64,000 bases of DNA from Petrachloros mirabilis ULC683 (lineage in GTDB: Bacteria > Cyanobacteriota > Cyanobacteriia > Thermosynechococcales > Thermosynechococcaceae). Of the stretch, positions 141-49,817 are shown one piece after another. The position numbers and the translations under genes were made by a program. The DNA lies in NCBI RefSeq assembly GCF_009939295.1, contig NZ_WVIC01000005.1:1-64000 (forward strand). Direction: 5' to 3'. The notes under the pieces are model-generated. The model ran no database searches and was not told the DNA's origin. It worked only from the letters and a program-made list of their open reading frames with translations. Position 1 is the stretch's first letter; each line of letters opens with the position of its first letter.

Positions 141-1508
141 CTAAAGTAACTGCTGCAAATCTCTGACGACCGCCTGAACCGACCTATACCGATCTTCTGG
201 GCGGGGATGGGTCAGTTGCTCAATGATGCCCTGCATCGCCGGACTCAACCGAGCCATATCCTGAATCTGAAGCCGAAAGACTTGATCCACCAAGCGATAA
301 AAAGCATCGGGTTCTTGCCCCGTGAGCAGGTATACCAAGATGCCGCCCAAAGAATACAGGTTAGAGGCCGGGGTGGCCTTGCCAGTCTGCTGCTCTGGGG
401 CGGCATAGCCCACTGCCCCCACCAGCGTACCCGCTTCTGGCGTCACCTGTTTAACCTCCCCAAAATCTACCAGAACCACTGGGTTATACCCGTGAGGAAT
501 GGTTGGACGGATCAAATTACTGGGTTTGAGGCTGGGATGCACAATGGGAGGATCCTGCTGCTGTAGATATTGCAGTAGATCGCAAAGATCTAGAATCCAG
601 CTCACTGCCTGTACCTCAGATAATGGCCCCCGCAAGGCCACCCACTGTTTGAGGGTTTGACCATAAATTAAATCACTGACCACAAAGGATTGCCCGCCCG
701 CCTCAAAGGCTTCATAGATTTTGGGCATACCGGGGTGACTCAACTGACAGAGCGCCTCAGCTTGATGCTGAAAATTCCCGATCGCCTCCGCTTGACCAGC
801 CCAGTCGGGTTTGAGGGTTTTGAGCACAACAGTATGCCCCTCTCGCCAGCCAACGAAGGTGTTTTCGCTGGTTCCCAGGCGCTTGAGGAGGGTATAGGCG
901 GCGATGGTGCGCCACACTTTCAACGGATGGCCACACTCCACACAAAACAGGTCGCCGTCTTTGGCTCGTTCGTGGGCACAGGGCTGCGGCAACTGCACCG
1001 CCGAGGGGAATGGATGAATTCCCTGCACTGAGAAGCCCTGGGATTCATCTGGTGGGGAAGCGGATGTGCCGGATGGGTCTACTGCCGCAACGGGCTCTTC
1101 GGATGGAGCGGGGGCGTCTTCAGAGTCAACGAATGCCTCAGGGCTGGCCAATGGCTCGGCCACTTGTGGATCTGTCAGGGTTGCAGGGTTTGAGGCTGGG
1201 GAGGTTCCCGTCTGAATCTGAATCTGAATGTTGGGGCCAGATCGAGCCAGGCGCATCACGTTGCCACTGCTGAGGGGAGCCTGATGCACGCGCTTGCCAT
1301 CTAGGTAGGTGCCATTGGTGCCGATGTTAACCACATCCCACTGCTGCCCAACCTTGCGAAGTTCTACATGGTAGCGGGACACCACCGCGCTATAGAGCAC
1401 CACATGATTATCGACTGCTCGACCAATGCGAATCACCGGGTCTTGATCAAAGCTCCAGCTTTGAACCGGTGTCGATTGGACAGGATGCAGGAGGGTTAGA
1501 GTAATCAC
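141..1508 (-). CDS. FHA domain protein with C-terminal protein-kinase-like domain (probable pseudokinase)
   Basis: 455 aa. Residues 1-100 form an FHA phosphothreonine-binding domain with IGR near 28-30, SRYH near 44-47, and NGT. A low-complexity Pro/Ala/Glu linker follows, then a short Cys/His cluster near 177-196 (CxH and CxxC, zinc-ribbon-like). Residues from about 203 to the end match a Ser/Thr kinase fold. The VAIK-type lysine (VVLK), DFG (VDFGE) and APE (AAPE) are present. The catalytic HRD loop reads HPSLKPSN, so the catalytic Asp is Ser and the Arg is Pro. It lies 3 bp downstream of another FHA gene, presumably in one operon. A phosphopeptide-binding scaffold is likely; catalysis is doubtful. 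Confidence 0.85.
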   Translation of the reverse strand: MITLTLLHPVQSTPVQSWSFDQDPVIRIGRAVDNHVVLYSAVVSRYHVELRKVGQQWDVVNIGTNGTYLDGKRVHQAPLSSGNVMRLARSGPNIQIQIQTGTSPASNPATLTDPQVAEPLASPEAFVDSEDAPAPSEEPVAAVDPSGTSASPPDESQGFSVQGIHPFPSAVQLPQPCAHERAKDGDLFCVECGHPLKVWRTIAAYTLLKRLGTSENTFVGWREGHTVVLKTLKPDWAGQAEAIGNFQHQAEALCQLSHPGMPKIYEAFEAGGQSFVVSDLIYGQTLKQWVALRGPLSEVQAVSWILDLCDLLQYLQQQDPPIVHPSLKPSNLIRPTIPHGYNPVVLVDFGEVKQVTPEAGTLVGAVGYAAPEQQTGKATPASNLYSLGGILVYLLTGQEPDAFYRLVDQVFRLQIQDMARLSPAMQGIIEQLTHPRPEDRYRSVQAVVRDLQQLL

Positions 1509-1511
1509 GGG

Positions 1512-2204
1512 TTATTTAAGCTGAAATAAGAATGTGACCAAATCCCCCTTGCCCAGGGAAATGCGATCGCCAGGGCGCAGCCGATGGCGATGACCAGGCA
1601 TCAAAAATGTGCCATTAATATAGGTACCATTGGCGCTACTGGCATCTTCGAGAAAAAACTGTCCTTCATCCACATAGATATCTGCATGAATCCGGGAAAC
1701 AACTTCAGCACTGGGCAAGGGTGCAATGTCAATATCGGGAGGAATGCGTTCATTGGGCTTACCCAGATGAATGACTTGCAAGTTGGCCGGCAGCTCATAG
1801 GGAGTGTTGGTTTGCACATGCAGTAAATGATAGGCCGGCTGAAGATGGGTGGAGGGATTCTCGGATAGGTCTTCAGGATAGTCTGATGCGGATGGGGCAG
1901 GAATGTTGTAGCTTGCCCCATCCCCCGGGGCTTGTTGCAGCTCTGGACTCACAACTTGGGGGGCGGGGGGCATGGGTTCTAGCATCTCTAACCCTGGGGG
2001 GGAAGAGGCTTTGGCAGCGAATGCGACTTGAGTTTCGGTGGCGGGGGGTAACTTAAAGCCACATTGACCACAAAAGCGGGCATGGGCTTGGAGGGGTGCC
2101 CCACAATTGGGGCAACTATGGGTGTCAGGCAAGACGGTATAACATGCCTCGCAGTTCGCTGCACCATCTGGATTTTGATAAAGACAGTTGGGGCAAACGA
2201 TCAT
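1512..2204 (-). CDS. Zinc-ribbon and FHA domain protein
   Basis: 230 aa. The N-terminus has several CxxC pairs (CPNC, CEAC, CPNC, CGQC) forming double zinc-ribbon modules within residues 1-55. A disordered Pro-rich linker follows, then a C-terminal FHA domain from about 130 with SRIH and NGTY. The usual GR of the FHA domain is GK here. It starts at an ATG at 2204 and ends 3 bp before the FHA/kinase-like gene, so the two are probably co-transcribed and may work together in phosphothreonine-dependent signalling. The partner is unknown. Confidence 0.85.
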   Translation of the reverse strand: MIVCPNCLYQNPDGAANCEACYTVLPDTHSCPNCGAPLQAHARFCGQCGFKLPPATETQVAFAAKASSPPGLEMLEPMPPAPQVVSPELQQAPGDGASYNIPAPSASDYPEDLSENPSTHLQPAYHLLHVQTNTPYELPANLQVIHLGKPNERIPPDIDIAPLPSAEVVSRIHADIYVDEGQFFLEDASSANGTYINGTFLMPGHRHRLRPGDRISLGKGDLVTFLFQLK

Positions 2205-2393
2205 AGTAAAAGCTTTACTCCCAGCAACCCGAGGCAGAAGATGATTTTAAGTTTGGTGATGACGCCAAGTCCATTGCTCATGAGTTCAGTGATGAGGTGA
2301 CAATGACGGGATTTGGAGTCGTTCTCAGTATAGAGTTGATTAATCCTAAATGGTACAAGATGCCTGAAAGAACCCAACTATGGAGGCATCGGT

Positions 2394-3128
2394 TCACAAT
2401 TTTTCGGGCATTGGTAGCTTCTGTCCCGCTGCTGCATCCAGCAGCCATGTCAGCGATCCTTGGGGATGAATGAATCGGGCTGGATAAGCTCTGGGATTTC
2501 CTGTTTCTGCAAAAATTTGATCCAGTGCTGATTGTTTATTTTCACCAGTGACGAGAAGCAATACGGCATGAGCCTGGTTAATCAGCGGAATGGTGAAGGT
2601 GAGTCGGGGCTGTCCTGATTTTTCACCCACGGTAATTAGGCGATCGCAGACCTCTAGGGCGGCGGTTTCTGGAAACAATGAGGCGGTATGGCCGTCATCC
2701 CCTAGGCCAAGCAAAATTAGATCAAAGGCGGGAAATTCACCGGGCGGACAGCCGAAAAAATCTCGCAGATGTTGCTCATAGGCGAGGGCGGCTTGGGCTG
2801 GATCTGTGGCATGGGTAGGCATCGGATGCAGATTTTCGGCGGGGATGGGGACGTGGCTGAGCCAGGCTTGGGTGGCCATGCCCATGTTGCTTTGGGGGTC
2901 GGTGTGAGGAACATAGCGTTCGTCGCCCCAGAATACCTGGATTTTTGACCAGGGTAGGTCTTGGTGGGCTAGCTGTTCGTAGAGGGCTTTGGGGGTGCTA
3001 CCCCCTGCAAGCACGAACCGGAACTGGTCGTGATCTGCGATCGCAGCCTCTATATGATTCAACACCAGGATTAGCGCCCGCTCAGTCACCGCAGCACCAC
3101 TCGGAAGCACTTCTACCGTTCGATTCAT
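2394..3128 (-). CDS. pgl: 6-phosphogluconolactonase
   Basis: 244 aa, normal length for the Pgl/DevB family. It hydrolyses 6-phosphogluconolactone to 6-phosphogluconate in the oxidative pentose phosphate pathway in the cytoplasm. Family motifs are FVLAGGSTP (about 38-46), FWGDERYVP (about 66-74), and LGLGDDGHTASLFP (about 140-153). The gene is 11 bp downstream of the DUF3370 gene on the same strand, so it may be read from the same transcript. KDPG aldolase of the related Entner-Doudoroff route is encoded at 25 kb, but the two genes are not linked. Confidence 0.95.
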   Translation of the reverse strand: MNRTVEVLPSGAAVTERALILVLNHIEAAIADHDQFRFVLAGGSTPKALYEQLAHQDLPWSKIQVFWGDERYVPHTDPQSNMGMATQAWLSHVPIPAENLHPMPTHATDPAQAALAYEQHLRDFFGCPPGEFPAFDLILLGLGDDGHTASLFPETAALEVCDRLITVGEKSGQPRLTFTIPLINQAHAVLLLVTGENKQSALDQIFAETGNPRAYPARFIHPQGSLTWLLDAAAGQKLPMPEKL

Positions 3129-4827: not shown

Positions 4828-5616
4828 CTAAGCCCCCATGCCCGAATAATGTTTTAGCCCTCGTCTCCATAGCCAACGATTGACCCCAAAGCTGAGGAGA
4901 CACCAGAACAAAATGACGCCCAACCCTTGATAGAGATTGACGTTTAAGCCGCTCAAGAGTCCGGCGGGAAAGTACACCAGGTAGGGAAAGGGAGTCCACA
5001 AGATCACGGTGCGCACGGCATCAGGAAATAACTCTAGGGGAGCAATCATGCCCGAGAGAAACAGATAAAACAAAAACCAGACCTGCTCGATGGCTGTGGC
5101 TCGCTCTGTCCAAAAGGCAAACATAGAGAAGGTGTACTGAATTAAAAACCGCAAAATGAAGGCAGCCAAAATTGCGATCGCAGCCAACCCCACCTGCCCC
5201 AGGGAGGGAACCCAAACCGCTTGGGGATAGAGAACAAAAAACAAGACCAGTAGCACCACCGTAAAGGGCAGCCGCGCCAGTCGTTCAGAGATATGACCCG
5301 CGACATGGTGCCACACCGGATCAATGGGTTGTAAAAGACGAGGGGAAAGCTTGCCCTCAACCACCTCTTTTTCAAATTCCCAGACCACCCAGACAATTGT
5401 GAGTTGACGCACAAAAAAGACACTAATAAAGTAGCGGGCAAACTGAATGGGGTCGAGGTCAAATTGACCCCCTTGAGAGGCTTCTACCCAAATGCCCATC
5501 ATGATCAGGGGCAAGGAGTTGGCCAGCACCCACAAGACAAGCTCGGCTCGATATTCCACCATGTAGGCATAGTAAACCGACAAAAAGACACGGATTTGCC
5601 GCCAGATCAAGGCCAT
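4828..5616 (-). CDS. ABC-2 family transporter permease
   Basis: 262 aa with about six hydrophobic segments (roughly 25-45, 62-80, 115-135, 145-170, 180-200, 215-240). It resembles the cyanobacterial ABC-2 permeases paired with NatA-like ATPases. The substrate is not deducible. Its start directly abuts the stop of the ATPase gene, a tight operon. Such exporters often have two permease genes; only one is present here, so it either works as a homodimer or has a partner elsewhere. Confidence 0.88.
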   Translation of the reverse strand: MALIWRQIRVFLSVYYAYMVEYRAELVLWVLANSLPLIMMGIWVEASQGGQFDLDPIQFARYFISVFFVRQLTIVWVVWEFEKEVVEGKLSPRLLQPIDPVWHHVAGHISERLARLPFTVVLLVLFFVLYPQAVWVPSLGQVGLAAIAILAAFILRFLIQYTFSMFAFWTERATAIEQVWFLFYLFLSGMIAPLELFPDAVRTVILWTPFPYLVYFPAGLLSGLNVNLYQGLGVILFWCLLSFGVNRWLWRRGLKHYSGMGA

Positions 5617-7714: not shown

Positions 7715-7822
7715 GGGAAAACTGGGTAAATTGGTAAGTGTAGTCTCTGTAAATAGTCTCTCTTGGAAGTAAATTGCCAAACAATAGCTCCCAGTAGCCA
7801 GGCACTCTCTTCGCTTCAGCAG

Positions 7823-8884
7823 ATGGGACTAAGGCTAGTATCTGCTTTTCAGGGGAGAGATATTGTTTTTGCGATTGATCTAACCCAAAGTGTAGGCTTA
7901 AGCGATGAAGGCCGTTTGCGATTACGCCAAATTATTCAGGATAGTCTCCAAAAAGGAGACTCAGTTTATATTGTTCCTTTTGCCTCTACGATTAATCCAC
8001 TAAGTCCAACGATTGATCCAATTTCAGCAGAAACTGCTCTGTTGTATAAAGGTAGTGATCAAGATATTGATCAAATTTTACAAGCAGTTCCGCTTCAGTC
8101 AGATTCTGCTCTACAGAATACAGATATTCAGAAAGCCGAGTCTGTAGTCTATAAAAAATTAGCTGAACTCAATCAATGTCGCTTAGCAGAGAACCAGGGT
8201 ATTAGGTTTCAGGCAGTTGTATGGTTGACAGATGCTCCACTACTAACGGAACCGGGAATTTCTTCGGATGTTTGGGTGGAAACCCCAGCCGACAGTTCAT
8301 TCCGCCAGCAAGATTCTCAACCAAGCCTGGAACGCCAAAGTTGGATTGACGCCCTGCCGATTGACATCAGATCGCAAGCCATTGACAACTACAAGCTCAG
8401 TGTTGTAGACATTCAGCCGACAGTACAGGAATTTTGTACTCCGGCACCCGGTGGGCGTGAAACCTGCTTGGTCAATGCCTACCTCGTTCAACAACTTTGG
8501 TTGCCAGGTCTAGTCAGTAGTGTTTGCCTAGTGGGAATACTGGGTTTAGGAATATGGGGGATTCGATATTGGCGAAGCTTGAACCAAACCTGGAAGCTTC
8601 AGATTAAAGGCGGGGATGATGATGAAGCACTAATTAAACATTTGAAGAATGGTCAGAAGATAAGCATTGGAGGCGACATCGAATGTCCTGGGCCAGATGT
8701 AAGAGGCTATCTAAGACGAGAAGGAAATCAACTTTTTTTAGATGTTGTAAGCAGTAGTGAATATCCCATCTACTATAAAAACACTCGGGTCACTCAACGA
8801 ACAGCATTAAAAGGTCATTATGTTCACTTAAATTGCCCTAATAATTCTCGTGACTTTGAGTTAACGATTCGTATTAATACTTAG
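7823..8884 (+). CDS. von Willebrand factor A domain membrane protein
   Basis: 353 aa from the ATG at 7823; the reading frame is open back to a TTG at 7763. The vWA domain begins almost at the N-terminus (GRDIVFAIDLTQS), with a MIDAS variant DxTxS in place of DxSxS and a later Asp in WLTDAP. One membrane helix (LWLPGLVSSVCLVGILGLGI, about 225-245) is followed by Arg/Lys residues and a C-terminal beta-rich domain (NGQKISIGG, GYLRREGNQLFL) that could be FHA-like. Two Cys just before the helix and the positive residues after it suggest an exported vWA domain. No signal peptide is present and the frame is closed upstream, so the 5' end may be truncated. It heads an AT-rich operon with the tubulin-like gene 19 bp downstream. 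Confidence 0.8.
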   Translation: MGLRLVSAFQGRDIVFAIDLTQSVGLSDEGRLRLRQIIQDSLQKGDSVYIVPFASTINPLSPTIDPISAETALLYKGSDQDIDQILQAVPLQSDSALQNTDIQKAESVVYKKLAELNQCRLAENQGIRFQAVVWLTDAPLLTEPGISSDVWVETPADSSFRQQDSQPSLERQSWIDALPIDIRSQAIDNYKLSVVDIQPTVQEFCTPAPGGRETCLVNAYLVQQLWLPGLVSSVCLVGILGLGIWGIRYWRSLNQTWKLQIKGGDDDEALIKHLKNGQKISIGGDIECPGPDVRGYLRREGNQLFLDVVSSSEYPIYYKNTRVTQRTALKGHYVHLNCPNNSRDFELTIRINT

Positions 8885-8903: not shown

Positions 8904-11900
8904 ATGTCTGAATCAAAACATGAATCCCGAACAATCAAGCGAACGCTTTGCATTGGTTTGGGTGGTACAGGGCGAGATGTGCTCATGCAGATTCGCAAAC
9001 TCATCATTGATCAACATGGTAAACTCAGCAATCTTCCAATTGTCAGCTTTGTTCATATTGATACAGATAGAGGTGCAGGCGGGATTTCAGGATTGAAAAC
9101 TGGCAATACCTACCGAGGAGAAAATATTCTATTTCATGAATCCGAGAAAGTTACAGCATCAATGACAAGTCATGAGATCGATGATCTTATCAAAGGCTTG
9201 AAAGAAAAAGAAATTTATGGGCACCATAATCCCTACAATTATATTCGGAATTGGCTCTCTCCTCACCTGCTCGATAGCATTAGCGCCATTGAAGACGGAG
9301 CAAGTGGAATTCGGCCTATAGGTCGACTGGCATTCTTTTATAATTATGGAAAAATTCAGGAAGCCATCCAAACGGCAGAAAATAACACTATAAATCATGA
9401 AGAATTCCTGATTAACCAAGGACTCATAGTTGAGCCAGGATTAAATATATTTGTGGTGGGTTCACTCTGTGGTGGCACTGGCAGCGGCATGTTTTTAGAT
9501 GTTGCCTATGCACTGCGAAAAAAATACTTTAATAATACTCAATTGAAAGGCTATTTGATTATTAGTCCGGAACTCTATGGTGATGCACCCAGCATGTATG
9601 CCAATGTCTATGCAGCACTAAAAGAGCTAAATCATTATTCAGCTAATAATTTTAGAGCCTGTTATGATCCAGAAAACATAGTTCAGATAGACGAACAACG
9701 AGCTCCATTTGACTTTGCGTATATCATATCTAATAAAAATTCAGAAGACTATAAAATTTTGGATAAAAATAAGCTCAACAACGTAATTGCCAACAAAATA
9801 TATTTAGATTTTGGACATGAATTAACACCGCGCATCAAAGAACAAGAGAGTGATTTTCTGTTACAAATGACTCTATTAGATCGACATCCTCGTCGAAATA
9901 TTCAGAAATATTCAACATTTGGATTGGCCAAAATATATTTTCCAAATGAACGCATTATTCAAGCTGCCTTGAATCAAATCAAACATAACTTAATTCAATT
10001 TTGGATTAAGGGTGACAGTCAAAGCCCTGATTCGAAAATGTTATTAGATAAATTTTTACTAAAATGGGAAGTCGGACAAGGGAATAAAGCACCTTTCATG
10101 CAACAGCTCAAATCAATGTCTCCAGAAAAGAGTAAAACTTTTTCGCAGTCATTGAAGATCTGGAGTAGTCAAATTGAAGCAAGCATAAATTCATTGCAAA
10201 AATCAAATGATCGACAGCAATTTCTAGATCAAATTTTCAGTGATATAAGTTTACAGTTTCGCAAAGTGCAACCTGGAGAGACTGAAAGCAAAAGAGGAGC
10301 ATGGCTCAATCATGTGCAAGAAAGCAGGTATGAATTAGTTCACGAACGAAAAAAAGATATTGAAGAATTCTTGATAGAATTACTCCAACCATCTTCTCAG
10401 TACTTTTCATTAGAATGTGCAAATTTATGGCTTGAGGCTTTAAAAACACAATTGAATGTTTGGACAAGAGAATTAGAAGAAGACTTAAAGTCTGTCGAAG
10501 GCTTAAGTGATCTTGACGATATAGATAAAATACGAAAAAATGCAAGTCAAAGGCTAGAAGATATTGAAAACCAATTTGACTTCCTAGGATTCAAAAGAAA
10601 GAAGAAAAATCGCCAGTTTCAAGAAGAATCCCTAAAATATTTGAAATCTAGCATAAAACTTATTCGTCAAAACTTTGATTATGTCACAGTAAAAGAAAGT
10701 CTCCATGTTTTAAAAGAACTGCAACAGACAGTTCAGGAACTAATTAGTCATTGTCAGAATTTCAAATCTTTTCTAGAAAATATGAGTGTAAATCATGAAA
10801 ACCAACATGATAATTTATTACACCTGAACCAAGATGAAATTACTGGAGAAGCACTTTTTACTAAGGGAGATACTGAAGCCTGTTATAAAATATTTATATC
10901 TGACAAAGATCATGAGAATATATTAGTTGAAGTTAGCAAGCAAATTATTGAGCAAGTTAGTATTCATCGTTCGCTTTTTTATCTTTTAGTGCAAGAAAAC
11001 AATTTGGATGAGCATACACTGAGAAATGGAATTGATTCTATTTGCGATAAACAATTTGGTCATAAAATTGATTCTGTTCAGCAGTCTGCGATTCAGCGAT
11101 TCATGGAAAAATACCCCTTTGCAAAAGCCGAACAACGGATGAACCAGGTTCTGCGGGAAGCAGAACCACTATTGCCGCTTAATCTAGGTGATCATTACTT
11201 TGAAAATCACAAACGCAAAGAAATGAAAATCATTGCATTTAAGCAATCAAATAATCCTTTAGATCAACATTTTCAAAATCTCTTGACTCAAAATCTTGGT
11301 ATTAACAAATCTATACTAAAGCCTATTCAAAGTGGAAATGAAGTTTTTATTGTAAATGAATATGCAGCTTTCCCATTGCGATTAATTAATGGATTAGAGA
11401 AAATGCGAATGCATTATGATCGCCAGTGTCACTTGGATATATCTCTAATTCATAATAATTTCACTGAGATTTTTACGGAAATTATCCCACCTGCACCTAA
11501 AGTCATAGAAAAAATCCAGAATGGATTTTATGCCTGTCTTGCGTTTGGAAAGCTGGACAAAACGAGTGAGGGGTATCTCTATCCTATTTATGATGATTTT
11601 TTCAACCGTCATGAAAATATAATACTTGAACCTACTTGGACAGCAGCGCTTGAGCAAATTTCAAAAAATGCAACTCTTGCTGAAGAATTATTTCAAGCTA
11701 AACAAGACGTTATCGAGGAAATAAGGCGCGATAATTCCCGTTGGGAACATCACTACGAGCCTAAGTTGCAAGAATTTATTAATTATGTAGAAGAACTTCC
11801 TGAGACTGATCCAAATTATAAAGAAAGAGTAACGGTTATTGGAGAGAGAGCTACACTTGAGAAACCTAAACGACCTGGAATCCTCACTAAAATTTCTGAT

Positions 11901-12002
11901 TATATTAAGCAAGAAGTCCTAGGATCAAAGTTGATTGCACCAACAGACAAACATTTGCTCGAAGCTAATTCTCAAAAATCGACAGAAGAAATTGACAGCT
12001 AA
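8904..12002 (+). CDS. Tubulin-like (Tubulin_2 / FtsZ-like) GTPase with long C-terminal region
   Basis: 1032 aa. The N-terminal third is a tubulin/FtsZ-type GTPase: a Rossmann start (CIGLGGTGRDVLMQIRK, about 16-32) and the tubulin signature variant SLCGGTGSGMFLDVA near 187-201, where the usual GGGTGSG reads CGGTGSG. It matches the Tubulin_2-type families seen beside vWA genes rather than cell-division FtsZ. The remaining 650 residues are largely Lys/Glu/Gln-rich helices with probable coiled coils and no membrane helix. AGGAG lies about 10 bp before the ATG. It is probably a cytoplasmic polymerising or scaffold GTPase for the downstream stator-like proteins. Composition is AT-rich. Confidence 0.88.
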   Translation: MSESKHESRTIKRTLCIGLGGTGRDVLMQIRKLIIDQHGKLSNLPIVSFVHIDTDRGAGGISGLKTGNTYRGENILFHESEKVTASMTSHEIDDLIKGLKEKEIYGHHNPYNYIRNWLSPHLLDSISAIEDGASGIRPIGRLAFFYNYGKIQEAIQTAENNTINHEEFLINQGLIVEPGLNIFVVGSLCGGTGSGMFLDVAYALRKKYFNNTQLKGYLIISPELYGDAPSMYANVYAALKELNHYSANNFRACYDPENIVQIDEQRAPFDFAYIISNKNSEDYKILDKNKLNNVIANKIYLDFGHELTPRIKEQESDFLLQMTLLDRHPRRNIQKYSTFGLAKIYFPNERIIQAALNQIKHNLIQFWIKGDSQSPDSKMLLDKFLLKWEVGQGNKAPFMQQLKSMSPEKSKTFSQSLKIWSSQIEASINSLQKSNDRQQFLDQIFSDISLQFRKVQPGETESKRGAWLNHVQESRYELVHERKKDIEEFLIELLQPSSQYFSLECANLWLEALKTQLNVWTRELEEDLKSVEGLSDLDDIDKIRKNASQRLEDIENQFDFLGFKRKKKNRQFQEESLKYLKSSIKLIRQNFDYVTVKESLHVLKELQQTVQELISHCQNFKSFLENMSVNHENQHDNLLHLNQDEITGEALFTKGDTEACYKIFISDKDHENILVEVSKQIIEQVSIHRSLFYLLVQENNLDEHTLRNGIDSICDKQFGHKIDSVQQSAIQRFMEKYPFAKAEQRMNQVLREAEPLLPLNLGDHYFENHKRKEMKIIAFKQSNNPLDQHFQNLLTQNLGINKSILKPIQSGNEVFIVNEYAAFPLRLINGLEKMRMHYDRQCHLDISLIHNNFTEIFTEIIPPAPKVIEKIQNGFYACLAFGKLDKTSEGYLYPIYDDFFNRHENIILEPTWTAALEQISKNATLAEELFQAKQDVIEEIRRDNSRWEHHYEPKLQEFINYVEELPETDPNYKERVTVIGERATLEKPKRPGILTKISDYIKQEVLGSKLIAPTDKHLLEANSQKSTEEIDS

Positions 12003-12095: not shown

Positions 12096-12133
12096 TTACC
12101 CAAATTGACTGTAATGTTACCCAAATTGACTGT
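12096..12133 (+). repeat. 17-bp tandem repeat at the stator gene start
   Basis: TTACCCAAATTGACTGT occurs at 12096-12112 and 12117-12133. The second copy lies inside the coding region just after the ATG at 12114. The duplication creates a spare in-frame TTG (12105). It may be a translation or transcription control element or a replication-slippage scar. Confidence 0.7.
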
Positions 12134-14426
12134 CCTCTTCCCTTTACCTTTGTTAGCACTGACTATAATTTTAGTCATTCTTCCAACTGTGGCTGCAATT
12201 TGGCTCCGCATTCTTTTGCATCAAAACCTTGTTCATAAAAATAAGATTGTTTCACGTTTACTAAGTCATAACCCGCCAGGTATAAAACCTGATATCTTAA
12301 CCAATGTTGAATTGCGATATAAGTCAACTAGTGATGACATGGAAAATGTCAACACTATTGCACTAATCAGCAGTGCTTATGGTCAAGAAGAAATAACATT
12401 TTTGGGGATCAATGTTAGTTGCGAACAAGCCGAATACTTTAGCCGAATTTTACCTAACTTACTCCTCGCTCTTGGTCTTCTTGGAACCTTTTTAGGTATC
12501 ACGGGTAACTTATACAATATTGGCGATGCCATTCGAGACGCGAATCAACCTGGCGTAGACATCTCTGTCCTAGTTCAGCAACTTCTTCCGCAACTGCAAG
12601 GCATGGGTATTGCTTTTTTTAGTAGCCTTATTGCCCTTGTTTGTAGCTCTCTTTTAACAATCGTTAACTTCTTCTACAATACTGCTTGGGAAAAATATCA
12701 ATTAATTAGTTCATTAGAAGACTATCTCGACAATATTTATAAGTCAAAAGTTCAAGGACAAACTCGCCTTGATAAAGCTGTTGATCGGATGGTTAAGCAG
12801 CAAGAAGAGTTTTTGCTGCGATTCCATGAAAAAGTTGGGCAAGTTCTCGAAGAAACTTTTGGCAAAGCTGCGAATCAAATCGCTAACGAATCCAGCAAAT
12901 TAAGTCATTTGGCTGAGCAGGTATACTCTAATTTTTCTCAAGCTTCCGGAACTATCCGCACTGGAGCTGATATGTTTCGGGTGGCAGCGCGATCTTTAGA
13001 ATCACAGACTCAAACTCTGGCTAATCTCTTACCTCATTTTGAATATAGTTCACAACAGTTAATTTTAGGGAGTACTCAGTTTCTATCTGCCGCTGAAAAA
13101 ATTGAAAATGCTAATATAATCGATAACCTAGAAAGAATTACTTCTAGCTTGTCAGGCACTCAAGAAGCATTTACACAGTCAACGATGAGTTTAGAGTCTG
13201 GGCTGGAGATCATCATGAGCAGTAATGTAGAAGCGGCTCAGTTGGCTGAGAAAGTTTATAGTGAGCTTTATGCTTCAATATCTGAAATGCAACAGGGTTC
13301 AGCAAAGTTCTTGAAAGCAGCTAATATTATTGACAATGCATCACTCGCATTGGCTCTAGACGAAGCCGCCATCAAATGGACTTCAGCTCAGCAAGATTTT
13401 TCAGACTCTACATCTTTGTTTTGCCAATCTACACAATCTCTACAGCCAGCAGTACAATCGCTGCACGAGTCTAGCCAATCTATCAATTCGTTAAGTAGTC
13501 ATATTTCTTCTTTAGAACAAGAAGCCCTGGAGGTTTCCTTATCAATAAAGGAAAATATTACCTCAAGAGATAATCAATTTATTGCCAGTCAGCAGTCTTT
13601 GACAAGTTCAATTGACACTCTGAATGTTCAACTTTGCAAATTTGAATCTGACTTCGAAAGAATTGCAAAAATTTATATAAACGAATCTTCCAAACTTTTT
13701 GAAGAGCATTCTCGAAGAAATATTCATTTTACTGATCTTTTTAATCAATACTTTGATGGGTTTTCAAATAATCAACAAAATTTACTGACTTTCATAGAAT
13801 CACAAAATAAAGTCAATGATGATTTAACTAAAACCTTCCACGATACACATCTGAAGTTTCTAGAAAAATTTGAAACCATATCTAGCAAGATAGAATTTAT
13901 CATTGATTCCCCCAAAAACAGCACACCTGAAATAAAAAACCATGCTGTTATAGGCTCTCCAATTCCTGAATACCTAGAATCAGATTTTGAAATACTATCT
14001 AGTCACTTAGCTTCAGACAATTGGCGCGAAGCTGATCTTTCAACATTCAAACTTATTTTGAAGGCAATTGGGCAATCTCCTGACACTTCACTAACAGATT
14101 CTAAGGTTGATCAAGTGCCTGCAGATTTGCTTGTATCAATTGATCAACTCTGGATGCAATTTAGTCAAGAAAAATTTGGATTGTCTGCTCAGCATCAAAT
14201 TTGGCAAGATTGCATTGATTCAGGTGTTTCTGATAACTTAGCGCAACGAGTTGGTAGTTTGCTAGGTTGGCATCATGAAAACGACTGGCTTTACTATGAC
14301 AAGCTAAATTTTAAAAATATCCATGAAGCTCCCAAGGGGCACTTTCCTGCTCGCATCTATGATTCGTGGGATGGCAACGGAGTTGTATTCAAACCTAATT
14401 GGGTTCTAAAACTAAAAAACTCTTGA
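12114..14426 (+). CDS. MotA/TolQ/ExbB (ZorA-like) stator protein with coiled-coil tail and C-terminal GUN4 domain
   Basis: 770 aa from the ATG at 12114; a TTG at 12105 would add three. Hydrophobic segments lie near 6-30, 115-140 and 165-190. The second and third carry ExbB/MotA signatures (LGLLGTFLGITGNLYNIG; GIAFFSSLIALVCSSLL). About 430 residues of amphipathic Ser/Gln/Glu-rich helix follow, as in the long cytoplasmic tail of ZorA. The last 145 residues are a GUN4 domain: NWREAD, SIDQLWMQFSQEKFGLSAQ, LGWHHENDWLYYDKLNF, and APKGHFPA all match. GUN4 binds porphyrins and assists Mg-chelatase in chlorophyll synthesis; its role here is unknown. The neighbours are a tubulin-like GTPase upstream and an OmpA-type partner downstream. 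Confidence 0.88.
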   Translation: MLPKLTVLFPLPLLALTIILVILPTVAAIWLRILLHQNLVHKNKIVSRLLSHNPPGIKPDILTNVELRYKSTSDDMENVNTIALISSAYGQEEITFLGINVSCEQAEYFSRILPNLLLALGLLGTFLGITGNLYNIGDAIRDANQPGVDISVLVQQLLPQLQGMGIAFFSSLIALVCSSLLTIVNFFYNTAWEKYQLISSLEDYLDNIYKSKVQGQTRLDKAVDRMVKQQEEFLLRFHEKVGQVLEETFGKAANQIANESSKLSHLAEQVYSNFSQASGTIRTGADMFRVAARSLESQTQTLANLLPHFEYSSQQLILGSTQFLSAAEKIENANIIDNLERITSSLSGTQEAFTQSTMSLESGLEIIMSSNVEAAQLAEKVYSELYASISEMQQGSAKFLKAANIIDNASLALALDEAAIKWTSAQQDFSDSTSLFCQSTQSLQPAVQSLHESSQSINSLSSHISSLEQEALEVSLSIKENITSRDNQFIASQQSLTSSIDTLNVQLCKFESDFERIAKIYINESSKLFEEHSRRNIHFTDLFNQYFDGFSNNQQNLLTFIESQNKVNDDLTKTFHDTHLKFLEKFETISSKIEFIIDSPKNSTPEIKNHAVIGSPIPEYLESDFEILSSHLASDNWREADLSTFKLILKAIGQSPDTSLTDSKVDQVPADLLVSIDQLWMQFSQEKFGLSAQHQIWQDCIDSGVSDNLAQRVGSLLGWHHENDWLYYDKLNFKNIHEAPKGHFPARIYDSWDGNGVVFKPNWVLKLKNS

Positions 14427-14750
14427 TTTGGAGGATGCAGTGTAAGGCGGGACAGTTTGATACGAGTCTTAGGGGCTGCACAAAGGTTTTTCTATGCTCT
14501 ACCTTCGCCCCTAACCCCCCATTCGGGGGGGTAAAGAATTCTCAAAGTCCCCCAGAATGGGGGATTTAGGGAGCAGGTGCAAAGCGTTAGACACTTTTCA
14601 AACCGCCACTTACCTGGCCAAAAGAGCTATAAGGCTTACTTTGTCGGACAAAAGCTAAAATCCTTGTGGGACAAGCTGTCTCACCTTAAGCTGATACCCT
14701 GATTTGGTGATTATTAAATTGCTAACTATATAAGAAATTAAGTGAATTTT
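14427..14750. repeat. Intergenic insertion with inverted C/G-rich repeat
   Basis: This 324-bp gap separates the two stator genes. An imperfect inverted repeat has arms 14508-14531 (CCCCTAACCCCCCATTC...) and 14547-14571 (...GAATGGGGGATTTAGGG), a pattern dispersed in many cyanobacterial genomes. The rest, 14572-14750, shows no gene; it may carry a secondary promoter for the downstream gene. Confidence 0.65.
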
Positions 14751-15392
14751 ATGAATAGATATTCTAACAGGATTTTAGATCAAGAGTCATTAAATGTATT
14801 CAGGCCATTTACTGATTTGATGTCTAATGCCTTTATGATTATGACTTTCTTTCTTTTGCTGAGTTTGTTTCAAGCAATGGCATTAAATAGAGATCTTCAA
14901 TCAGCAAATGAAAGTCTTCAATCCGCTACACCTATCATTATTGATGAGCAGTCTGGTGATTTCAAGTTTCAATCCGGCAGCGCCCAATTGACATCTGAAT
15001 TAAAGAAATATATTGAGACAGATATTATTGTAAACATACAAAATATTACGCAAAAGCACAATATTGAATTCATCCAAGTTATTGGTCACACAGATGGCCA
15101 AACAATTAATCGTTCCAGTAATCTTGATGAGAAACTGGAACTTGCTGCCTTAGGCCAGCAGCCTGTTGCTCAACTTGCTCCTGGTTCAAATGCTGATCTG
15201 GGACTTATGAGGGCTATCGCCGTAATTCAATTACTTCAAACCTCAGAGCAACTGAAAGATATTGATTTTCGAGCTTATTCTGCTGCTCAGCTCTACTTAC
15301 CCTCAGGTAAGTTGGCCACTGTCAATCGAAGTGATGATGAATCTCGTCGCCGCATTGAAATTCGATTTGTACCCCCAGGTCAGCAACGTTAA
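14751..15392 (+). CDS. MotB/OmpA (ZorB-like) stator partner
   Basis: 213 aa from the ATG at 14751; a GTG at 14742 would add three. One N-terminal membrane helix (DLMSNAFMIMTFFLLLSLFQ, about 22-41) begins with an Asp placed like the proton-binding Asp of MotB and ZorB. The C-terminal half is an OmpA-type peptidoglycan-binding domain (VIGHTDGQ, SRRRIEIRFVP). The domain order and size match ZorB. It presumably forms an ion-driven complex with the MotA/ZorA-like protein encoded upstream. Its stop TAA overlaps the next ATG by one base. Base composition is AT-rich, like the rest of the island. Confidence 0.88.
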   Translation: MNRYSNRILDQESLNVFRPFTDLMSNAFMIMTFFLLLSLFQAMALNRDLQSANESLQSATPIIIDEQSGDFKFQSGSAQLTSELKKYIETDIIVNIQNITQKHNIEFIQVIGHTDGQTINRSSNLDEKLELAALGQQPVAQLAPGSNADLGLMRAIAVIQLLQTSEQLKDIDFRAYSAAQLYLPSGKLATVNRSDDESRRRIEIRFVPPGQQR

Positions 15393-15874
15393 TGTTTGCA
15401 ATTGAGAAGGTTTGGCCAACGAGCGAACACTACTTTCAGGCACAAAAGCACGTCGGGAGTCCACTGGAGGAAGATATCCGGAGGGCTGTGGGGCCACGGG
15501 CAGCCTTCAAGCTTGGTCGGTCACAACAGCCACGTTCCGACTGGGCGAAGGTTAAAGACACCGTGATGTATCGCGCGGTACGAGCAAAGTTCGAGCAGAA
15601 TCGCAAGCTTCGGGAAATGCTGCTCTCAACAGGCGATGCGGAACTGATCGAGCACACGGTGAACGATGACTACTGGGGGGACGGTAGCGGCCGCAACATG
15701 CTGGGTTGCATCCTGATGCTGATTCGTGAGGAGATGCGTGATTCAGGCACCGAACTAGGCGATGAGTCTGATCGGGGCTGTACCGTTATGATGTCTTGGA
15801 GAGTTCCGTTATTTGCATTCTTCCTAACGGAGATTACGAGCTATGACCCACTTAGACCTGACTTCTCTGACTAA
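15392..15874 (+). CDS. NADAR (YbiA-like) family protein, N-terminally truncated
   Basis: 160 aa. From residue 8 it matches YbiA/NADAR strongly: WPTSEHYFQAQK, RSDWAKVKDTVMYRAVRAKF, and DDYWGDGSGRNMLG. NADAR proteins are N-glycosidases acting on ADP-ribose or riboflavin-intermediate substrates; some reverse guanine ADP-ribosylation in toxin systems. The first about 40 residues of the family, including the YGxFSNF segment, are missing and are replaced by seven unrelated residues. About 40 extra residues follow the normal C-terminus. The ATG overlaps the upstream stop as TAATG. Composition is GC-richer than the island. It may be inactive, or a remnant marking the island edge. Confidence 0.75.
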   Translation: MFAIEKVWPTSEHYFQAQKHVGSPLEEDIRRAVGPRAAFKLGRSQQPRSDWAKVKDTVMYRAVRAKFEQNRKLREMLLSTGDAELIEHTVNDDYWGDGSGRNMLGCILMLIREEMRDSGTELGDESDRGCTVMMSWRVPLFAFFLTEITSYDPLRPDFSD

Positions 15875-17415: not shown

Positions 17416-19941
17416 ATGACTGCATTCCCTGACCCCTCCAGTTTTGATCTACAACCCCCCGTCCATCAGTTACTGGAGCTGTCTCGGCAAGATCCAATGC
17501 TGCGATCGCAAGATACCGCAGCCATCCAAAATTCCCTGCGAAAGGCGCTCTCACCGACCTTTGAAATTGTGTTTGCGGGGGCCTTTAGTGCGGGCAAATC
17601 CATGCTGATCAATGCCCTGCTCAAGCGCAAATTACTCTACAGCGCCGAGGGCCACGCCACGGGCACCGAATGTCAAATTGCCTACGCAGAACCAGATCAA
17701 GAGCGGGTGGTGCTCACCTTTTTAAGCCAAACCGAAATTCACGACCAGGCCACGTTGCTGAGTCAGCGGCTAGGGCTGAACGCGCCCATGCAACTGGATC
17801 AACTTGACGGCCTGGGGGCACTACGCCAAGCCTGTCAGGCGATTATCCAAGCCGAAGGGGGCGAGAACCGCTCTGAACGGGCTAAGCAGGCCAGTGCCCT
17901 CAATTTCTTGCTGGAAGGCTACGAAAATAACCGCGATCGCATCCAGCCTCAGGACAACGCCACCTATCCCATGGAGCAATTTCACTTTTCCACGCTCCAA
18001 GAGGCCGCTAGCTATGCCCGCCGTGGAGCCAACAGCGCCGTCCTTAAGCGGATTGAGTATGCCTGCCATGACGATCTCCTCCGAGACGGCAACATTTTGG
18101 TGGATACCCCCGGCATCGATGCTCCGGTACAAAAAGATGCCGCCCTCACTTACGACAAAATTAAGGATCCCGACACCTCTGCGGTCATCTGCGTGTTCAA
18201 GCCTGCGGAAACAGGAGAGCTGACCACCGAGGAAACGGAGCTACTGGAAACCATTCGCGCCAATCCGGCGATTCGCGATCGCGTCTTCTATGTGTTTAAC
18301 CGAGTCGATAAAACCTGGTACAACACCCAACTGCGACAGCGCCTCGATCGCCTCATTCAAGATCAGTTTCGAGACACCACCCGCCTCTACAAAACCAGCG
18401 GCCTTCTGGGCTTCTACGGCAGCGAGATCAAAAGCACCAGCCGCAGCGATCGCTTTGGACTCGACTCCATTTTTGCCGAGGATGTACACAACCATGGTTC
18501 CCAAGAAGAAGCCCCCCTATTTGTCACTGAGTTCAACAACTACTGCGCCTCCGGCAAACTGATAGACAGCCTCTTCCGCCCGGAAATTCGCGGCTACGAG
18601 CGTCCCAACGAAAACTATGTGCGCATTCTGTCCGAATATGGCACCCCGCTCATGGATCGCTTAATCCAGGACAGCGGCGTTGATGAATTCCGCACCGCGA
18701 TTACCCGTTATCTCACCGAAGAAAAACGCCCCCTCCTGTTTGCCAACCTGGCCGATGACCTCCAGCCCCTGTGCATTAATCTGCGCAAGCACCTGATTGA
18801 AACTTGGCAACACCTAGACAGTCAGCCCCGTGATATTGAAGCGATTCAAGAGCAAGAACTGCGACTGCTCAACCAAGAGCTAAAAGATATTGGCGATCAG
18901 CTGTGCACACATGTGGAGCATACGCTCAATTGTGTTATTGCCAGCAACAACAACCGCGCCTTTGAAGAAGACTTTCGCAAGCTGCAATCTCGTATGGTCA
19001 GCCGTCTCGATGAACTGCTACAGGGCTTCTCAGTCGCTGCTGTGCATCAACAGGCCCAGGCCAGCCATAAGCGCAATTCCGTGGTGCCCCTGCTCGGCAT
19101 TCTGGCCGAGGCTTTTTACCATCTCGCCAACGGCTTGGAAGAGGTTTTGGCCGCAGCCGCCCAGGAAGTGGTCAACAACTTTTTCCAGCAGTTGCTGGAT
19201 CAGGTGAAGCAACAAGACTACTACCGGGAACTGTACCGGCTGCTGGGGCATGACAGCGGTATTGAGCAGCGGCTATTGCAGCTTCAGGACTGGGTGTGTC
19301 GTGCCATCCGTAACGAAGCTCAAACCGAGTGCGATCGCTACGTGCGTGAGCGGCCCGAATTTTACGCCGAGGGCAGTGTCACAATCTGGCAATTGCGTCA
19401 AACCCTTCAGCAAGCCTGCCGGGGTTACGATTACCAGAGCATGATCGAAGCCGAGCCGGCCATTCGCCAACTGCTGAAGCTGGACTTTGAGCAAAAAGTA
19501 AAAGAGACGGTCATGCGCACCTTCCGGCAAACCATTAACCAAACCCTAAATGACCACCTGCTCAAAGAAACCGATGCCCTGGCGCTTGGCGTTCTCCAGC
19601 AATATGACCAGGCTCGAACCTATCTTGCCAAAACCCTGGCGAAAGAAGCTGAGCAAAAGATTCGCGCCAACCAGCAACAACAGACAGCAGTCCAGCGGCA
19701 GATTGAAGCCTACAATCAGGCAACCACCAGCTTCAATGCCTGCCTAGAAGCGATGCAGCTCGATCGCAAGCGACTCCCTGGGATTCAGCCCACTGATCTG
19801 GAGTTACTACCCACGCCCACTGTACCCAGCAAAGACCAGCCCCTAGAGACCGTCGAGGGTGAATTGATTGAAGGCCACCTACCACAGCCCTCAGTCGAAG
19901 CAAGCCTGGATTGGGCTTTCGTGGCCAACAGTGCTGGCTAA
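17416..19941 (+). CDS. Bacterial dynamin-like GTPase
   Basis: 841 aa. A large GTPase domain has G1 GAFSAGKS (55-62), G3 VDTPGID (about 230), and G4 FNRVDK (about 295). A long helical region suggests the stalk, with a hydrophobic stretch (LLGILAEAFYHLANGLEEVLAAA, about 556-578) that could be a membrane paddle. The family remodels or surveys membranes; cyanobacterial BDLP is the prototype. GC content and HIP1 sites are host-like, unlike the nearby island. The last 40 residues are acidic and probably disordered. Confidence 0.9.
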   Translation: MTAFPDPSSFDLQPPVHQLLELSRQDPMLRSQDTAAIQNSLRKALSPTFEIVFAGAFSAGKSMLINALLKRKLLYSAEGHATGTECQIAYAEPDQERVVLTFLSQTEIHDQATLLSQRLGLNAPMQLDQLDGLGALRQACQAIIQAEGGENRSERAKQASALNFLLEGYENNRDRIQPQDNATYPMEQFHFSTLQEAASYARRGANSAVLKRIEYACHDDLLRDGNILVDTPGIDAPVQKDAALTYDKIKDPDTSAVICVFKPAETGELTTEETELLETIRANPAIRDRVFYVFNRVDKTWYNTQLRQRLDRLIQDQFRDTTRLYKTSGLLGFYGSEIKSTSRSDRFGLDSIFAEDVHNHGSQEEAPLFVTEFNNYCASGKLIDSLFRPEIRGYERPNENYVRILSEYGTPLMDRLIQDSGVDEFRTAITRYLTEEKRPLLFANLADDLQPLCINLRKHLIETWQHLDSQPRDIEAIQEQELRLLNQELKDIGDQLCTHVEHTLNCVIASNNNRAFEEDFRKLQSRMVSRLDELLQGFSVAAVHQQAQASHKRNSVVPLLGILAEAFYHLANGLEEVLAAAAQEVVNNFFQQLLDQVKQQDYYRELYRLLGHDSGIEQRLLQLQDWVCRAIRNEAQTECDRYVRERPEFYAEGSVTIWQLRQTLQQACRGYDYQSMIEAEPAIRQLLKLDFEQKVKETVMRTFRQTINQTLNDHLLKETDALALGVLQQYDQARTYLAKTLAKEAEQKIRANQQQQTAVQRQIEAYNQATTSFNACLEAMQLDRKRLPGIQPTDLELLPTPTVPSKDQPLETVEGELIEGHLPQPSVEASLDWAFVANSAG

Positions 19942-48676: not shown

Positions 48677-48728
48677 GCCTGATGCACTCTATTTTCTGTC
48701 ATGTTTGGGAGAGCCGCTATATTCGCTT

Positions 48729-49817
48729 ATGCCTAAGATGTGGATTCTGAAGCAGTTGAGCTGTGCGTTGACAGTGGCTCTGATCACAACGCCGATGCGA
48801 CCCGTGACTCCCCAGACCCATTTCTACCGGGTCACTTGTCAAGCGCGGGTTTCTTTGGGTCAGGGTGTGAGTTTGACCTACCGACTCAGGGGCAGGCTGC
48901 CAGAGCGCACTGGGGCAGAAATTCCTCAAAACTCGGCTGGGGCAGCCTTAACCCTTACGGTGCAGCGGCAAGATCAAAATGGCCGGGTTCAAACTTTGCT
49001 CAATGCTTCTACGTTGAGGGATTATCAGCAGTTAGCTCCCGATGCTGACTATGCTCAATTGCCCTTTGAAGAAATGTTTCGCGCTCAGCCCCACAATGCC
49101 GATTATCTTTATGGGACACCCGCTTCGGTGCATGGACTTTACGTCAGTCTGCGCCCTATCAGCGGACAGCCCCAGCAAATGCAGATTGTCCACTACCTGC
49201 GCCTTGGCGAGTCTGTACGATCGACGGTGGGCACCTGTCAGACTGAGAATGGGGATCTTGACGCGGCTGTTGAGGAACAGTTGGCATTGTTACAAGACCG
49301 ACTCCAGGCTGGGGACTGGGGCGGTGCTGATCGAGAAACCCGGCGGCTGCTTGCACCGGAGTCGGCCTCGCTGCTACCCTTTAATCCTGGGTTGGTGCAG
49401 CCGAAGCTGATTCGTGCCATTGATCAGGTGTGGCTAACAGCCAGTAAGGGACGGTTTGGCCTCAGTGTTCAGTTGCGTCTTTGGCAGGAAGCACTGGCAG
49501 AGCATCCCAATAATCATGAGGCGGCTGTCAATGCCTTGCGCGATCGCGTTGGCTGGAAACTCGCTGCCCCCCGCGCTGAGGTTGACTTCATCAGTAGTGA
49601 CTGGCTTAATGAGTCGGAGTTGAGCTACTCCTTGCAAGCCCCAGAGGGACATCTACCCTGGGTTGGGGTGTCGGATGAAATAGTGCAAGGGGTGGCCATT
49701 CCACCACCAGGGGTACATTGTGGTAGTTGCACGGTCGATGCCATGCAGCTCCGCCACGAACGCTTCTATCTCTACATTCCCCAACTGATGTCACGGGTGG
49801 CGTTGGCCTTGGAGTGA
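48729..49817 (+). CDS. GUN4-domain protein with an N-terminal signal sequence
   Basis: 362 aa from the ATG at 48729 (an upstream TTG at 48705 or ATG at 48738 is possible). The N-terminus has a signal-like segment (ILKQLSCALTVALITTP). A beta-rich middle (about 30-160) is unrecognised. Residues about 180-310 are a GUN4 domain: LQDRLQAGDWGGADRETRRL, AIDQVWLTASKGRFGLSVQL, DRVGW, and APEGHLPWVG. GUN4 normally binds protoporphyrin and Mg-protoporphyrin in the cytoplasm or on thylakoids. Export to periplasm or lumen would be unusual. A C-terminal segment with CGSC follows. Confidence 0.85.
   Translation: MPKMWILKQLSCALTVALITTPMRPVTPQTHFYRVTCQARVSLGQGVSLTYRLRGRLPERTGAEIPQNSAGAALTLTVQRQDQNGRVQTLLNASTLRDYQQLAPDADYAQLPFEEMFRAQPHNADYLYGTPASVHGLYVSLRPISGQPQQMQIVHYLRLGESVRSTVGTCQTENGDLDAAVEEQLALLQDRLQAGDWGGADRETRRLLAPESASLLPFNPGLVQPKLIRAIDQVWLTASKGRFGLSVQLRLWQEALAEHPNNHEAAVNALRDRVGWKLAAPRAEVDFISSDWLNESELSYSLQAPEGHLPWVGVSDEIVQGVAIPPPGVHCGSCTVDAMQLRHERFYLYIPQLMSRVALALE

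What the first reader, a model, noticed from the sequence alone, without database searches (positions are those of the whole stretch)
13980..14426. GUN4 domain at the end of a ZorA-like stator tail
The last 145 residues of the stator protein match GUN4 at its diagnostic blocks (SIDQLWMQFSQEKFGLSAQ, APKGHFPA). GUN4 is known as a porphyrin-binding cofactor of Mg-chelatase. On a MotA-type motor it could be a tetrapyrrole, redox or light-dependent switch, or a replaceable sensor/effector end.
Basis: partly seen in the sequence, partly recalled or inferred. Interest (0 to 1): 0.85.

Follow-up and report, generated by a model that had tools for sequence, protein, structure and literature searches.

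The report
GUN4-tipped ZorA-like motor tail
A cyanobacterial membrane motor resembling the anti-phage ZorA motor carries, at the tip of its long internal tail, a worn-down copy of a chlorophyll-pathway protein domain (GUN4) that has lost its pigment-binding motif and is more likely a docking module than a light or pigment sensor.

Summary
Residues 625-749 of the stator (window 13977-14351) match Pfam GUN4 at E=2e-26; an AlphaFold model of the domain (pLDDT 92) superposes on porphyrin-bound GUN4 4XKC with Z 18.2 and 2.3 Å over 140 residues. The stator is ZorA-like: its profile finds only ZorA among motor structures. It sits in a conserved operon vWA / FtsZ-like Tubulin_2 / stator / MotB-like OmpA (all four genes in 51 of 80 related loci), the FtsZl1 operon type of Makarova & Koonin 2010, imported here as a low-GC block. 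GUN4 is absent from all other complete tails examined except one, in "Unicellular cyanobacterium SU2". Stator, tubulin and GUN4 trees each reject a shared origin, so it was captured at least twice. Best reading: a reused conflict/signalling docking domain on a ZorA-type tail tip. New combination of known parts; function untested.

The parts
7763..8884 (+). vWA-type protein (373 aa), first gene of the operon; MIDAS-type DxTxS loop; one hydrophobic C-terminal stretch that looks like a membrane helix (by eye)
   Evidence: no Pfam hit; 40-51% identity to first genes of orthologous operons; D, T and S of the loop invariant in 54/54
8904..12002 (+). Tubulin_2 / FtsZ-like-1 protein (1032 aa)
   Evidence: PF13809 E=4.8e-94; full-length relatives at 40-44% identity
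12105..14426 (+). ZorA-like stator with C-terminal GUN4 domain (773 aa from TTG; 770 aa from the likely ATG at 12114)
12141..12674 (+). MotA/ExbB/ZorA-type membrane core (predicted helices aa 14-54, 106-146, 153-190; PNLLLALGLLGTFLGIT motif)
   Evidence: AlphaFold secondary structure; 44-55% identity to the 12 closest of 18 operon orthologues, 30-34% to the other 6; ZorA/TolQ/ExbB fold, Z about 10-11
12675..13955 (+). long helical cytoplasmic tail (aa 191-617), ending in a low-confidence linker
   Evidence: nearly continuous helix aa 193-604, low pLDDT
13956..14423 (+). GUN4 domain, aa 618-773 (Pfam core 625-749); LxNxLR motif lost
14742..15392 (+). MotB/ZorB-like protein with one membrane stretch, conserved Asp25 and an OmpA-type peptidoglycan-binding domain
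   Evidence: PF00691 E=4e-4 (below cut-off); ZorB E=2.3e-6; Asp25 present in all 70 gap-free rows

Best explanation
An ion-driven, ZorA/ZorB-type membrane motor belonging to a cyanobacterial FtsZl1-vWA-OmpA operon has had a degenerate GUN4 domain added to the distal end of its helical tail. Proposed working: stator subunits and OmpA/MotB-like subunits form a 5:2 complex; the OmpA domain anchors on peptidoglycan; ion flow past the conserved Asp turns or rearranges the stator bundle; the tail carries this into the cytoplasm, where GUN4 domains at the tip dock or release a partner protein (a component of the same operon such as the tubulin-like or vWA protein, or a cytosolic signalling or conflict protein). 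GUN4 acts as a protein-interaction end, not a pigment sensor. Shown here: GUN4 fold, ZorA-like core, conserved Asp, operon, order of domains, motif loss, at least two captures. Inferred from Zorya: 5:2 assembly, rotation, recruitment by the tail. Inferred only: the partner and the biological role.
For: GUN4 fold and sequence. ZorA-like core. OmpA-protein Asp25 in 70/70 gap-free rows. Conserved operon, all four genes in 51/80 loci, stator+OmpA in 70/80. Long helical tail ahead of GUN4. In ZorAB the tail bundles five C-termini, is needed for function, and is proposed to recruit the effector (PMC11890865). LxNxLR in 22/22 canonical GUN4s, 0/17 paralogues. GUN4 paralogues are fused to kinases, caspases, NACHT, trypsin and one lies beside MoxR and DGR genes on a Microcystis plasmid. 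Two captures: AU test against a joint clade p=0.001 (stator), p=2e-45 (tubulin) and p=0.01 (GUN4).
Against: No partner was identified. No ZorC/D/E-type effector was found among the neighbours scanned. The full-length model is poor in the tail and GUN4 part (mean pLDDT 60), so tail geometry is inferred. Only two of the complete stators examined carry GUN4, so it is not essential to the system. The adaptor role is an argument from association; the published view of fused GUN4 is the opposite, a tetrapyrrole sensor (Kaur 2020, PMC7159879). Both GUN4 operons happen to lie between orthologues of the same two core genes, which would fit one shared origin, against the trees.
Confidence: 0.55

Rival explanations
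1. Tetrapyrrole sensor: the GUN4 tip binds a porphyrin, heme or bilin and gates the motor according to photosynthetic or redox state.
For: True GUN4 fold close to porphyrin- and bilin-bound structures. The Phe equivalent to Arabidopsis F191 is kept in both stator GUN4s (my reading). Kaur et al. 2020 propose that fused GUN4 domains sense tetrapyrroles (PMC7159879). Mutating the Arg weakens but does not abolish porphyrin binding (R211A 3- to 7.5-fold, PMC8967248).
Against: All four LxNxLR residues are replaced. [quoted passage not shown] The segment after GHFPA diverges completely from canonical GUN4.
Confidence: 0.2
2. A Zorya-type anti-phage system: the motor senses envelope damage during phage entry and the tail recruits effectors, with GUN4 as the effector-docking tip.
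For: ZorA is the only motor family found by profile. Kinase-GUN4 proteins are inside the PADLOC model PDLC04062 of the defence kinase PD-T4-6. Low-GC imported block; patchy distribution, 70/386 genomes with any match.
Against: No ZorC, ZorD or ZorE-like gene among the neighbours scanned. Constant partners are vWA and a tubulin-like protein, not a Zorya set. No phage data.
Confidence: 0.15
3. Neutral or accidental fusion: a GUN4 module landed at the 3' end of the stator gene and adds nothing.
For: Rare, 1 of 78 complete stators in the named loci plus the window; tail ends vary freely in length; many GUN4 modules are available in cyanobacterial genomes.
Against: Gained twice independently at the same place; open frame and confident fold kept despite about 28% identity between the two copies; composition already matches the operon, GC3 0.28, so not a fresh accident.
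Confidence: 0.15
4. A gliding or cell-envelope remodelling motor in which tubulin-like filaments are moved or positioned by the stator tail.
For: FtsZl1/vWA/OmpA operons were predicted to remodel membranes (PMC2875224); stator homologues drive gliding in Myxococcus (PMC13104615).
Against: Cyanobacterial gliding is attributed to type IV pili (PMC13104615). Nothing ties GUN4 to such a role.
Confidence: 0.15

Closest known systems
Zorya ZorA/ZorB (5:2 anti-phage motor; PDB 8QYD, 8QYK, 8VVN)
   Same: ZorA-like membrane core, MotB-like partner with membrane Asp and peptidoglycan-type domain, long helical cytoplasmic tail
   Different: Operon partners are vWA and a tubulin-like protein; no ZorC/D/E found nearby; a GUN4 domain at the tail end
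FtsZl1 / vWA / OmpA operons (Makarova & Koonin 2010, PMC2875224)
   Same: Tubulin_2 gene with vWA and OmpA-type genes in one operon
   Different: In the passages read, that paper names no MotA/ZorA stator; here the gene between FtsZl1 and OmpA is one, and in this genome it is fused to GUN4
GUN4 fused to kinases, caspases, trypsin, TIR (PMC1262709, PMC2853523, PMC7159879)
   Same: C-terminal GUN4; the fused copies examined here also lack the LxNxLR motif
   Different: Partner is a membrane motor subunit instead of an enzyme or NTPase; the papers read do not list it
Canonical GUN4, Mg-chelatase cofactor (4XKC, 7E2T)
   Same: Fold: 2.3 A over 140 residues, 24% identity
   Different: LxNxLR motif lost, different C-terminal segment, no N-terminal helical domain, fused to a stator

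Membership tests
GUN4 domain family (PF05419) | Score above Pfam's curated cut-off | tested here: met
   93-96 bits against 29.2
GUN4 domain family (PF05419) | GUN4 fold | tested here: met
   Z 18.2, 2.3 A, 140 residues to 4XKC
Canonical GUN4 (tetrapyrrole-binding Mg-chelatase cofactor) | LxNxLR ligand-binding motif | tested here: not met
   All four residues replaced; present in 22/22 canonical GUN4s, 0/17 paralogues
Canonical GUN4 (tetrapyrrole-binding Mg-chelatase cofactor) | Binds porphyrin or bilin; binds ChlH | not testable with these tools
   Needs purified protein
ZorA | ZorA-like MotA/ExbB membrane core | tested here: met
   PADLOC ZorA1 7.8e-15; profile to 8QYK 1.3e-8, no other motor family at E<=1
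ZorA | Long helical cytoplasmic tail | tested here: met
   Predicted helix aa 193-604, low pLDDT
ZorA | 5:2 assembly with a MotB/ZorB partner, ion-driven | not testable with these tools
   Partner gene present; membrane Asp in all 70 gap-free rows; assembly not modelled
Zorya system | ZorC/ZorD or ZorE effector genes | tested here: not met
   None among the window genes and recurrent neighbours scanned with PADLOC; rest of genome not scanned
FtsZl1-vWA-OmpA operon | Tubulin_2, vWA and OmpA-type genes together | tested here: met
   the vWA gene is assigned by its MIDAS loop and orthology, without a Pfam hit

The most novel reading that the evidence does not exclude
Degenerate GUN4 domains form a shared adaptor system of cyanobacterial conflict and signalling proteins, and this motor has been plugged into it: envelope-sensing rotation at the membrane is relayed by the GUN4 tail tip to GUN4-bearing kinases, caspases or NACHT proteins, or to the operon's tubulin-like filaments, linking an ion-driven motor to a death or defence response.
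Probability: 0.2. Interest if true: 0.8.

Novelty: new variant of a known kind. Interest (0 to 1): 0.5.

Why it matters
It shows, twice independently, that the far end of a ZorA-type motor tail tolerates and acquires a folded domain, which fits the view of the tail as an output arm with an exchangeable head. It adds a membrane motor to the known carriers of cyanobacterial GUN4 paralogues, and the motif loss argues against reading every GUN4 fusion as a pigment sensor. It also places a ZorA/ZorB-like motor in the FtsZl1-vWA-OmpA operons, predicted in 2010 to remodel membranes and still without a mechanism in the papers read here.

Tried and rejected
Viral contigs with the whole stator: no relative. 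Plasmids: 14 records match; the best places lie in the tail-end/GUN4 part and none covers 80% of the stator. G010 coiled-coil-GUN4 protein (L007), nearest to the window GUN4: not accepted as a stator, because no MotA-core match was seen in that genome and no OmpA gene follows; its N-terminus is cut by the contig end. NADAR gene as an operon member: rejected, it lacks its first ~28 residues and starts where GC jumps; the missing piece was not found at the left flank. Other fused domains on long stator tails (up to 1108 aa): no convincing Pfam domain. OmpA protein against PDB sequences: no hit. GUN4 segment as a late graft by composition: its GC3 equals the operon's. A stop loss joining the stator to a downstream gun4-like gene was considered and not tested. 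Hu et al. 2025 Zorya paper not held.

Full report
CHECK. The reading frame 12105-14426 (+) is open and codes 773 aa from TTG, 770 from the in-frame ATG at 12114. Pfam GUN4 matches residues 625-749 with E=2e-26, and the significant PDB sequence hits to the last 148 residues are GUN4 proteins. An AlphaFold model of residues 618-773, built on 29 GUN4 sequences fetched here, has pLDDT 91.6; it aligns to Synechocystis GUN4 with bound Mg-deuteroporphyrin (4XKC) over 140 residues at 2.3 Å, Z 18.2, and no unrelated chain scores above Z 3.5.

THE HOST PROTEIN. Its N-terminal part is a MotA/ExbB-type core. Against PADLOC it scores as ZorA1 (7.8e-15), and a profile of 19 orthologous cores finds ZorA structures and no flagellar MotA, TolQ or ExbB chain at E<=1. 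The whole-protein model shows membrane helices at 14-54, 106-146 and 153-190, then almost continuous helix to about residue 604, a low-confidence linker, and GUN4; confidence is fair in the core and low in the tail. The core superposes on TolQ, ExbB and ZorA at Z about 10-11, so fold alone does not single out ZorA; the sequence profile does. After a 315-bp gap, the gene 14742-15392 is MotB/ZorB-like with a membrane aspartate (Asp25) present in all 70 gap-free rows of the family alignment.

THE OPERON. Upstream lie a vWA-type gene (no Pfam hit, but D, T and S of a DxTxS MIDAS loop invariant in 54 of 54 homologues) and a Tubulin_2 gene (E=4.8e-94). The tubulin gene brought in relatives at 40-44% identity from other cyanobacterial families, most with the same order vWA-tubulin-stator-OmpA. 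A scan of GTDB genomes gave 80 named stator loci: 70 have the OmpA gene, 59 a tubulin gene and 51 all four. Makarova and Koonin (PMC2875224) described FtsZl1 genes with vWA and OmpA-type genes and predicted membrane remodelling; the passages read do not name a stator. The window copy is a low-GC block (GC 0.35-0.43 per gene against 0.507 for the window), so it was probably imported, and the GUN4 part shares its composition (GC3 0.28).

HOW RARE AND HOW OFTEN GAINED. Of the 78 loci with an uncut stator among the 80 named ones, one carries GUN4: L140, 'Unicellular cyanobacterium SU2' (E=8.8e-41). In 386 genomes sampled over the phylum no other GUN4 place coincides with a stator place (compared by eye on the listed rows; one search checked the fetched loci by HMM). 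The window stator groups with Geminocystis, Hydrococcus and Gomphosphaeria stators, SU2 with Prochloron and Laspinema. Holding window and SU2 together is rejected for the stator core (AU p=0.001), the tubulin (p=2e-45) and the GUN4 domain (p=0.01). So GUN4 was captured at least twice. One oddity remains: in both genomes the operon lies between orthologues of a dynamin-like GTPase and an ABC-2 permease (62% and 59% identity), genes that were on different contigs or far apart in the other genomes where both were listed. I cannot explain this; the coincidence was noticed after the fact.

THE POCKET. Rockwell and Lagarias define LxNxLR (Synechocystis L209, N211, L213, R214) as the bilin-contacting motif, show that its Asn is essential in Chlamydomonas GUN4, and report its loss in cyanobacterial paralogues (PMC10156173). 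The Arabidopsis residues F191 and R211 matter for porphyrin binding (PMC8967248); from the numbering of 7E2R I place them at Synechocystis F196 and R214 (inference). The motif is present in 22 of 22 canonical GUN4s, including this genome's own, and in 0 of 17 paralogues, including both stator GUN4s. In a gapless reading the window has A, I, D, S at the four motif positions; the Phe is kept. Bilin binding is therefore unlikely and porphyrin binding at best weakened; neither was measured.

THE COMPANY GUN4 KEEPS. Paralogues scanned here end in GUN4 after Ser/Thr kinase, caspase, NACHT and trypsin domains: in a set of 27, 14 kinases, 2 caspases, 1 NACHT, 1 trypsin. Kinase-GUN4 proteins match the PADLOC model PDLC04062 of the defence kinase PD-T4-6, and a Microcystis plasmid carries a GUN4-bearing protein next to a MoxR ATPase and a diversity-generating retroelement gene. 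Such fusions were published before (PMC1262709, PMC2853523, PMC7159879), with the proposal that they sense tetrapyrroles; the motif loss argues against that for the copies seen here.

MECHANISM. Zorya tails bundle five ZorA C-termini, are required for function, and are proposed to recruit nucleases after envelope damage sensed by ZorB (PMC11890865). By analogy, not by test: peptidoglycan-anchored OmpA subunits, ion flow at Asp25, movement of the stator bundle, and GUN4 heads at the tail tip that bind or release a partner. I put 0.55 on a docking role and 0.2 on a tetrapyrrole switch; the rivals about the purpose of the whole system (defence, envelope remodelling) can be true together with either, so the numbers do not sum to one.

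STATUS. New variant of a known kind: known domain, known motor type, known operon type, in a combination not found in the papers searched (ten full-text searches; most subscription papers are not held).

Noticed in passing
window 15392-15874 (+): NADAR ORF directly after the OmpA gene lacks about 28 N-terminal residues kept by homologues and begins where GC rises from about 0.38 to 0.55; probably a remnant at the right edge of the imported operon.
   Followed up: partly
window 14427-14741: The gap between stator and OmpA genes holds a copy of CCCCCAGAATGGGGGATTTAGGG, a dispersed repeat with 162 matches (up to 2 mismatches) in this genome and 0 for the reversed control.
   Followed up: partly
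window 48705-49817 (+) and G000:C10:64753-65172 (-): Two further GUN4 genes on the same contig: a 370-aa paralogue with an unassigned N-terminal half, and the canonical gun4 just beyond the window. All three GUN4s of the genome lie within about 51 kb.
   Followed up: partly
L137:10456-12075, L124:10300-12903, L097:9681-11696: A 539-867 aa gene directly downstream of the stator/OmpA genes in about 10 loci has no Pfam or PADLOC match; possible unrecognised component.
   Followed up: partly
L113, L116, L119, L123, L129, L139, L141: In seven Nostoc-type loci the canonical gun4 gene lies roughly 1.5-4 kb downstream of the OmpA gene on the opposite strand.
   Followed up: no
window 4828-5616 and 17416-19941; L140:11081-11869 and 583-3027: Both GUN4-stator operons lie between orthologues of an ABC-2 permease and a dynamin-like GTPase, although the operons are distant in the trees.
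   Followed up: partly
G583:C49:229154-229816 (L221), about 3.8 kb before the L140 operon: In SU2 the OmpA/MotB-like gene is not downstream of the stator but upstream on the other strand.
   Followed up: partly
L140:10100-10184: The end of the SU2 GUN4 domain has a local triplication GGHLPV around the GHLP motif.
   Followed up: no
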